Shown: in pieces, positions 15,797-16,751 of the stretch
Layout of the letters: every line of letters begins with the position of its first letter
Numbering within the stretch: the first letter of the stretch is position 1
Origin: an uncultured Bacilli bacterium
Lineage (GTDB): Bacteria > Bacillota_I > Bacilli_A > RF39 > UBA660
Assembly (NCBI GenBank): GCA_947627925.1
Contig: CANQXW010000011.1
Span: forward strand, 1 to 33,172
Length of the DNA: 33,172 nucleotides
Direction: 5' to 3'
Made by a program: the position numbers and the translations under genes
Notes under the pieces: generated by a model
What the model saw: only the letters and a program-made list of their open reading frames with translations
What the model was told of the DNA's origin: nothing
The model's database searches: none

Positions 15797-16555
15797 TTAA
15801 TTATAAACTAAATTATTATCTACTTTTAAACGATCTGCTAAAGTTGTAATATATTCAGCATTTGTTGGTTTATCTCGATTTACGTTTAAACTATTACCAA
15901 AAATGCTTTCCATCAAATTTATATCACCCCTATTCCAACTTATCTCGATCGCATGCCGAATGGCTCTTTCTACTCTCGTTGGCGTAGTATGATATTTATG
16001 GGCAATTTGCGGATAAATATCTTTGGTAATATACGCAATAGAATTTTTTTCTTTATAAACCATTAAGACTCCATCTTTAATAAATTGATAACCTCTAATA
16101 TGAGATGGTATTCCTAAATTGTGAAGCATATCTGTAACAATAGCTTCTTGATTAAATAATTTGTTTTGACTATTAGCCTTAAAATTAACATTTAAAATTC
16201 TCTTTTCTAAACTAAGAAAATTCAATGGCTTTAACATGTAATAGTCAACTCCATAAGAATTGGCTTCCTCTAGAATATTTTCTTCTTTAAAAGAAGTAGT
16301 AATAATAATATTCTTTTTAATTTCTCTTTTTTCTAGTTCGCTTAAAATATATAAGCCATCTAGTCTTGGTAGAATTAAGTCCATGACAATTACATCTATA
16401 TTGTTATCATTATTTAAGATGTAATCTAAACCCTCTTCTCCATCATTTTTACAAGCTACTACTTTAATTACTTCATGACTACGGAAATACTTCTCGATGT
16501 CTTTAGTTAATGAAGCATTGCTATCAATAACTAAAACATTAACGTTAGTTTTCAC
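15797..16555 (-). CDS. spo0A: Sporulation master regulator Spo0A
   Basis: Response regulator that, when phosphorylated, starts the sporulation programme. It has 252 residues, close to the family's 260-270. Receiver domain: Asp11, phospho-acceptor Asp59 (VIVMDLILPRLDG), Thr86/Thr87 and Lys109. The acidic pair before the loop is reduced to one Asp (VIDSN instead of the usual DDN). The C-terminal Spo0A DNA-binding domain is unmistakable: VTDMLHNLGIPSHIRGYQF, TTPTRVERAIRHAIEISWNR and KPTNAEYITTLADRL. No kinase or phosphorelay gene is nearby. Upstream sites suggest autoregulation. Confidence 0.97.
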   Translation of the reverse strand: MKTNVNVLVIDSNASLTKDIEKYFRSHEVIKVVACKNDGEEGLDYILNNDNNIDVIVMDLILPRLDGLYILSELEKREIKKNIIITTSFKEENILEEANSYGVDYYMLKPLNFLSLEKRILNVNFKANSQNKLFNQEAIVTDMLHNLGIPSHIRGYQFIKDGVLMVYKEKNSIAYITKDIYPQIAHKYHTTPTRVERAIRHAIEISWNRGDINLMESIFGNSLNVNRDKPTNAEYITTLADRLKVDNNLVYN

Positions 16556-16604
16556 TTTTTCACTCTCTTTCTTTCATTAAAATTTTTGTACTGCTTGTAA
16601 AAAC

Positions 16605-16610
16605 ATTATA
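16605..16610 (-). promoter_or_regulatory. Probable -10 element of the spo0A promoter
   Basis: Perfect TATAAT on the minus strand, about 50 bp before the spo0A start. The -35 region 17 bp upstream (TGGATT) is poor, as expected of a promoter that needs an activator or another sigma factor. A Spo0A-box-like TGTCGGA lies between the two elements. Confidence 0.5.
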
Positions 16611-16618
16611 AAAGATTT

Positions 16619-16680
16619 TCCGACAAAAATCCATAGGAAGTTTTGACAAGTTTTGTCAAACAATGTAAATATTTGTCGAA
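16619..16680. promoter_or_regulatory. Cluster of Spo0A-box-like sites upstream of spo0A
   Basis: The established Spo0A box is TGTCGAA. Within 62 bp there are four matches: TGTCGGA on the minus strand (16619-16625), TGTCAAA on the minus strand (16642-16648), TGTCAAA on the plus strand (16654-16660) and a perfect TGTCGAA on the plus strand (16674-16680). The middle two form an 8-bp inverted repeat, TTTGACAA-GTT-TTGTCAAA. Their position before spo0A implies feedback control of its own gene. Confidence 0.65.
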
Positions 16681-16730: not shown

Positions 16731-16751
16731 AAAAATGGCGAAAAAGCCATT
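16731..16751 (-). terminator. Terminator of pgk
   Basis: AATGGC/GCCATT stem (16734-16739 with 16746-16751) with a 6-nt loop, followed on the minus strand by a T run. The hairpin overlaps the pgk stop codon. Confidence 0.7.

What the first reader, a model, noticed from the sequence alone, without database searches (positions are those of the whole stretch)
16605..16680. Spo0A-box-like cluster in front of spo0A, including a paired inverted repeat
Four TGTCRAA-like sites lie in 62 bp, one of them a perfect TGTCGAA and two forming TTTGACAA-GTT-TTGTCAAA. One site lies between the -10 and the poor -35. Autoregulation of spo0A is established in Bacillus, but this tight set with opposed boxes could allow both activation and repression.
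Basis: partly seen in the sequence, partly recalled or inferred. Interest (0 to 1): 0.55.

Follow-up and report, generated by a model that had tools for sequence, protein, structure and literature searches.

The report
Conserved Spo0A self-control promoter array
In a small-genome gut bacterium related to Bacillus, the switch gene for spore formation carries a tightly spaced, evolutionarily preserved row of binding sites for its own protein, so it almost certainly regulates itself, and the same site layout recurs in front of other genes, including toxin-like small-peptide genes.

Summary
Five TGTCGAA-like sites with at most one mismatch lie in 72 bp before spo0A. None of 500 shuffles of the window reaches five. 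Read towards spo0A, four boxes sit head-to-tail at exact 10-bp steps. A convergent box follows (GACA-N5-TGTC), then a conserved ACTTCCTATGG where a -35 should be, then a box in the spacer, then TATAAT. The block is 83.5% identical among relatives, against 46.7% at fourfold-degenerate sites of the same genes. Relatives repeat the 10-bp register relative to TATAAT, and the triple array is unique in this genome. The Spo0A recognition helix matches B. subtilis. The sigF operon keeps TTTGTCGAA or TTTGTCGGA in 20 of 20 genomes examined. Spo0A autoregulation is therefore well supported by comparison. Whether the boxes activate, repress or both is untested. Dual 0A-box control of spo0A is known in B. 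subtilis, so this is a new variant of a known kind: a compact grammar without a visible sigma-H promoter. By-product: the same convergent pair plus CTATGG precedes multi-copy, type-I-toxin-like small-peptide loci.

The parts
15797..16555 (-). spo0A, 252 aa from GTG: receiver domain plus Spo0A_C DNA-binding domain
   Evidence: Pfam PF08769 E=2.8e-38 and PF00072 E=5.2e-17; the only Spo0A_C gene in the genome
16588..16598 (-). ACAAGCAGTAC at the inferred start of the transcript (+1 to +11); conserved, role unknown
   Evidence: GNNGTA present in 28/28 close and 25/27 family-wide anchored promoters (the anchoring itself required a GTA downstream, so this count is partly built in); aligned letters
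16605..16610 (-). -10 element TATAAT of the inferred sigma-A-type promoter
   Evidence: conserved in the close set; no sigma-H match better than shuffles
16619..16625 (-). box 5, TGTCGGA (TGTCAAA in most relatives), inside the spacer, about -27 to -21
   Evidence: TGTC at -15 from TATAAT in 25/28 close promoters but 9/27 family-wide
16631..16641 (-). ACTTCCTATGG, conserved sequence covering the place of a -35 element
   Evidence: strongly conserved in close relatives; shared with the small-peptide loci
16642..16648 (-). box 4, TGTCAAA, convergent with box 3 (GACA-N5-TGTC), about -50 to -44
   Evidence: TGTC at -38 from TATAAT in 26/28; N5 is the only spacing found in own-genome stretches
16654..16660 (+). 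box 3, TGTCAAA (TTTGACA read towards spo0A), about -62 to -56
   Evidence: GACA at -47 from TATAAT in 26/28 close promoters
   Evidence: slot holds TTACA in 21 and GACA in 6 of 28 close promoters
16674..16680 (+). box 2, perfect TGTCGAA, about -82 to -76
   Evidence: GACA at -67 from TATAAT in 27/28 close promoters
   Evidence: sequence; kept as TTCGTCA in several relatives
16734..16751 (-). terminator-like hairpin ending pgk, which separates spo0A from upstream transcription

Best explanation
The region is a Spo0A-bound autoregulatory promoter. Shown by sequence and comparison: up to four 0A boxes lie head-to-tail on one face of the helix (10-bp steps), the last of them is paired with an opposed box at N5, and all stand at a fixed distance from a TATAAT that lacks a recognisable -35. 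Inferred: phosphorylated Spo0A dimers fill the array cooperatively from the perfect box (16674-16680). The proximal pair (-62 to -44) then helps RNA polymerase with the housekeeping sigma factor, giving positive feedback as sporulation starts. The weaker box in the spacer (-27 to -21), inside the polymerase footprint, would fill last and cap transcription. Spo0A binding and autoregulation is about 0.9 likely; net activation by the upstream array about 0.6; a capping role for the spacer box about 0.45. The confidence given is for Spo0A autoregulation through this array, whatever its sign.
For: Cluster beyond chance. Block identity 0.835 against 0.467 at fourfold sites of the same genes, where composition alone gives 0.361. 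GACA cores at -67, -57 and -47 from TATAAT (and -77, -37 in some) and TGTC at -38 and -15. The GACA-N6-GACA-N6-GACA array is found once in 1.16 Mb, at spo0A, with none for the reversed control. 3.3 boxes per spo0A upstream region in close relatives, 1.7 family-wide, 1.9 in other Bacilli families, about 0.26 in shuffles. DNA-binding domain matches B. subtilis Spo0A-C (1lq1) with RVERAIRHAIE identical and this helix nearly invariant in the relatives. sigF operon upstream TTTGTCGAA or TTTGTCGGA in 20 of 20 genomes. The genome has spoIVA, spoIIGA-sigE, sigF and spoVA genes. Poor -35 suits an activator-dependent promoter.
Against: No binding or expression data exist. In B. subtilis a fitted model finds the 0A boxes of spo0A mostly repressive (PMC12090719), and its 0A4 box, which overlaps the Ps -10, has almost no effect, so box 5 here may also be silent. 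Box 5 is not kept in most of the wider family (9/27). The conserved ACTTCCTATGG and ACAAGCAGTAC are not explained by Spo0A boxes and may mean a second factor. The promoter was inferred from conservation, not from a mapped transcript.
Confidence: 0.85

Rival explanations
1. Spo0A binds, but the whole array is repressive: pure negative autoregulation that keeps Spo0A low, by occluding or slowing the polymerase. (This shares Spo0A binding with the best explanation and differs in the sign.)
For: B. subtilis modelling found the net effect of 0A1-3 repressive (PMC12090719). Box 5 lies inside the polymerase footprint.
Against: Most boxes lie upstream of -44, where repression is less usual, and the -35 is poor, which would leave little basal activity to repress. 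Box 5, the clearest repressor site, is the least conserved.
Confidence: 0.25
2. Another regulator owns part of the array: an OmpR/PhoP/WalR-like protein on the direct repeats, or a dimeric repressor on TTTGACA-N5-TGTCAAA.
For: TTTACA resembles a WalR half-site (from memory); the N5 inverted repeat is a clean dyad that also stands before PDDEXK_2 and small-peptide genes.
Against: PhoP-type repeats step by 11 bp (7-bp motif plus 4-bp spacer, M. tuberculosis PhoP, PMC4832192 abstract), while these step by 10. The outer boxes are perfect TGTCGAA. The N5 pair also stands before the sigF operon in several relatives. Other Bacilli families keep TTCGACA...TGTCGAA before spo0A.
Confidence: 0.08
3. Coincidence of AT-rich sequence.
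For: Single one-mismatch sites are no commoner than chance in the window.
Against: Shuffles, conservation against fourfold sites and the phase across species.
Confidence: 0.01

Closest known systems
Bacillus subtilis spo0A promoter region (Pv, Ps and boxes 0A1-0A4)
   Same: Several 0A boxes before spo0A; Spo0A~P acts on its own gene; individual boxes activate or repress (PMC12090719).
   Different: B. subtilis has two promoters, sigma-A Pv and sigma-H Ps, with 0A1-3 between them. Here one TATAAT promoter, no detectable sigma-H site, boxes at 10-bp steps, a convergent N5 pair and a box in the spacer.
Clostridioides difficile spo0A upstream region
   Same: Consensus 0A box at -75 from the start codon; Spo0A-DBD bound this DNA with the highest affinity seen for any C. 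difficile DNA tested, with several shifted species (PMC3485338).
   Different: Array geometry is not described in the passages read.
Bacillus subtilis abrB operator (tandem 0A boxes)
   Different: At abrB the boxes lie downstream of the promoter and repress (PMC12090719); here they lie upstream of the -10.

Membership tests
Spo0A-regulated (0A-box) promoter | core TGTCGAA with G2, C4, G5 contacts | tested here: met
   one perfect box and four one-mismatch boxes that keep G2 and C4; the box definition is from PMC3485338
Spo0A-regulated (0A-box) promoter | boxes in head-to-tail pairs at a 10-bp step | tested here: met
   16674 and 16684 in the same orientation; 10-bp register across species
Spo0A-regulated (0A-box) promoter | genome encodes a Spo0A with a conserved recognition helix | tested here: met
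Spo0A-regulated (0A-box) promoter | sites under selection across species | tested here: met
Spo0A-regulated (0A-box) promoter | Spo0A binds the DNA and changes expression | not testable with these tools
   needs gel shift and reporter
B. subtilis-type spo0A control (Pv plus sigma-H Ps) | a sigma-H promoter (RNAGGAWWW / RNNGAATWW) before spo0A | tested here: not met
   best match has 3 mismatches, the commonest value in shuffles; a divergent sigma-H-like protein exists, below the curated cut-off, so its site could differ
B. subtilis-type spo0A control (Pv plus sigma-H Ps) | several 0A boxes before spo0A | tested here: met
Type I toxin-antitoxin (by-product: multi-copy small-peptide loci) | short hydrophobic peptide | tested here: met
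   31-35 aa ORFs judged by eye, clearest in L186/L187
Type I toxin-antitoxin (by-product: multi-copy small-peptide loci) | structured mRNA with 5'-3' pairing | tested here: met
   fold z-scores -9.9, -7.2 and -9.4; both-sided changes at 12 of 74 pairs among five copies
Type I toxin-antitoxin (by-product: multi-copy small-peptide loci) | antisense RNA over the toxin mRNA | tested here: inconclusive
   antisense promoter-like site, 10-11 of 12 matches, in all 7 copies; single shuffled stretches reach 10 or more in 13% (94 of 700)
Type I toxin-antitoxin (by-product: multi-copy small-peptide loci) | peptide is toxic and neutralised by the RNA | not testable with these tools
   needs expression test

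The most novel reading that the evidence does not exclude
This lineage uses its own Spo0A operator grammar: reverse boxes at 10-bp steps, a convergent box at exactly N5, and TCCTATGG in place of a -35. The grammar controls both spo0A and dispersed type-I-toxin-like small-peptide loci with antisense promoters, so that entry into sporulation would also switch on small membrane peptides in these tiny-genome gut bacteria.
Probability: 0.3. Interest if true: 0.75.

Novelty: new variant of a known kind. Interest (0 to 1): 0.5.

Why it matters
Relatives such as RF39 are uncultured and are predicted to sporulate with a reduced gene set, largely without spoIIAB and spoIIE (PMC10868615). A conserved Spo0A operator grammar gives a concrete, testable handle on how sporulation could be started in such genomes. 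It also yields a search pattern (convergent boxes at N5, 10-bp array) that finds candidate targets where single-box counts fail.

Tried and rejected
Single-box counts over the genome gave no usable enrichment, so geometry was used instead. A degenerate pattern for the order-wide search was badly built, matched nothing, not even this genome, and means nothing. Repeats with TGTCGAA in several contigs were first taken for IS ends; they are upstream regions of a multi-copy PDDEXK_2 gene family; the notebook entry that calls them IS-like is superseded. A sigma-H promoter was sought and not found. spoIIGA was considered as a target, but its TACGACA...TGCCGTA also reads as the ftsZ terminator, so it is left open. 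spoIVA has weak box-like sites only. No Rfam family for the promoter region beyond one chance-level hit or for the small-peptide RNA; no relative of the latter in phages or plasmids, and an exact pattern in viral contigs found nothing. The exact abrB operator letters could not be confirmed in the paper library. The whole genome was not available as a file; targeted stretches were used.

Full report
What is there. The window is contig 11 of a 1.16-Mb, 88% complete genome. Its nearest named relatives are uncultured Bacilli, mostly from rabbit gut. I take the group to be order RF39 from its gene content and from PMC10868615; no taxon name was shown for the genome itself. spo0A (15797-16555, minus strand) lies between pgk, which ends in a terminator-like hairpin, and gpmI. 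The full set, read towards spo0A, is TTCGTCA, TTCGACA, ATTTACA and TTTGACA at starts exactly 10 bp apart, then TGTCAAA (GACA-N5-TGTC), ACTTCCTATGG, TGTCGGA, TATAAT and ACAAGCAGTAC.

Chance. One-mismatch sites are not enriched over the window (67 against 64), but five in 72 bp is not reached in 500 shuffles. The triple GACA-N6-GACA-N6-GACA with one mismatch allowed occurs once in the whole assembly, here, and the reversed control not at all.

Conservation. Thirty relatives with 68-96% identical Spo0A carry the same block. Mean pairwise identity of the block is 0.835, against 0.467 at fourfold-degenerate codon positions of the same genes, where base composition alone gives 0.361. Anchored on TATAAT, GACA starts at -67 in 27, -57 in 6 (with TTACA in 21 more) and -47 in 26 of 28 close relatives; TGTC starts at -38 in 26 and -15 in 25. 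In 27 family-wide promoters the peaks are -67, -57, -47 and -37, that is, the same 10-bp ladder. There the last rung often continues the ladder in the same orientation; in the window's clade that rung is an inverted box about 2 bp away. The spacer box is kept in only 9 of 27 there. Other Bacilli families keep a looser TTCGACA ... TGTCGAA arrangement before spo0A.

The protein. The Spo0A_C domain aligns end to end with the B. subtilis Spo0A-C/DNA structure 1lq1, with RVERAIRHAIE identical, and this helix is nearly invariant in the relatives, so the same DNA letters should be read.

Other targets. Upstream of spoIIAA-sigF, TTTGTCGAA (TTTGTCGGA in two) is kept in 20 of 20 genomes, the window's own included, several with TTTGACA at N5. 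In about 340 kb of own-genome stretches the convergent pair TYGACA-Nn-TGTCRA occurs 12 times, always at n = 5. Those stretches were fetched partly because they hold TTGTCGAA, and several hits are copies of one family, so independent contexts number about five: spo0A, a putative surface-protein gene (L068), the PDDEXK_2 family, a small-peptide family, and one inside a gene (L123). In relatives n = 5 is the shortest spacing and as frequent as n = 25 (24 each); 15 and 25 are its 10-bp ladder echoes at the same promoters.

The small-peptide family. Five own-genome copies (C5, C6 twice, C10, C22) and two relatives share the promoter grammar, with TCCTATGG or a near variant after the pair. They encode 31-35-aa peptides in RNAs that fold far better than shuffles (z -9.9, -7.2, -9.4), with both-sided changes at 12 of 74 pairs among the five copies. 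All seven have an antisense promoter-like site of 10-11/12, a score single shuffled stretches reach in 13%. This resembles type I toxin-antitoxin loci; toxicity and control by Spo0A are not shown.

Mechanism. Shown: conserved sites, geometry, distance to TATAAT, poor -35 (3 of 6), no sigma-H match beyond chance. Inferred: cooperative filling of the array by Spo0A~P, help to sigma-A polymerase from the proximal pair, and a possible cap by the spacer box. B. subtilis offers precedent for both signs of control and for a box overlapping a promoter element with little effect (PMC12090719). C. difficile Spo0A-DBD bound its own spo0A region with the highest affinity seen for any C. difficile DNA tested (PMC3485338).

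Limits. No binding or transcript data; promoter inferred; the assembly is incomplete; relatives are not independent, so counts of species overstate independent events. The abrB comparison rests on memory.

Noticed in passing
L139, L140, L077, L254, L255 (G000 contigs C6, C6, C22, C10, C5); L186 and L187 in relatives G368 and G374: Multi-copy small-peptide loci with a 5'-3' fold-back RNA, antisense promoter-like site and a promoter like that of spo0A; type-I-toxin-like, no Rfam match.
   Followed up: partly
L063, L065, L066, L069, L070, L071, L075: Upstream regions of a multi-copy PDDEXK_2 (Rpn-like) gene family carry tandem and convergent TGTCGAA boxes; they confound genome-wide box counts.
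   Followed up: partly
L104:12322-15145: spoIIAA-sigF-spoVAC-spoVAD and a spoVAE-like gene in a row with no spoIIAB between spoIIAA and sigF, in line with reduced spoIIAB reported for RF39 (PMC10868615).
   Followed up: partly
window 15797-16555 and L032-L061: Spo0A of this clade reads VIDSN or VIDNN where most other RF39 Spo0A proteins read DDN: one acidic-pocket residue is replaced.
   Followed up: partly
window 16588-16598: Conserved ACAAGCAGTAC (GCAGTA-like family-wide) at the inferred transcript start, role unknown.
   Followed up: partly
L121 (G000:C2 about 22.95 kb): TTTGTCGAA with flanks like those of spoIIAA stands upstream of a short ORF and a DivIVA-family gene.
   Followed up: partly
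L068 (G000:C15 about 23.4 kb): TTCGTCA-TTCGACA-N5-TGTCAAA, a short form of the spo0A array, before a putative surface-protein gene with no Pfam match.
   Followed up: partly
G299, G351, G354, G356 sigF matches: sigF matches contain one or two in-frame TGA codons in four related genomes.
   Followed up: no
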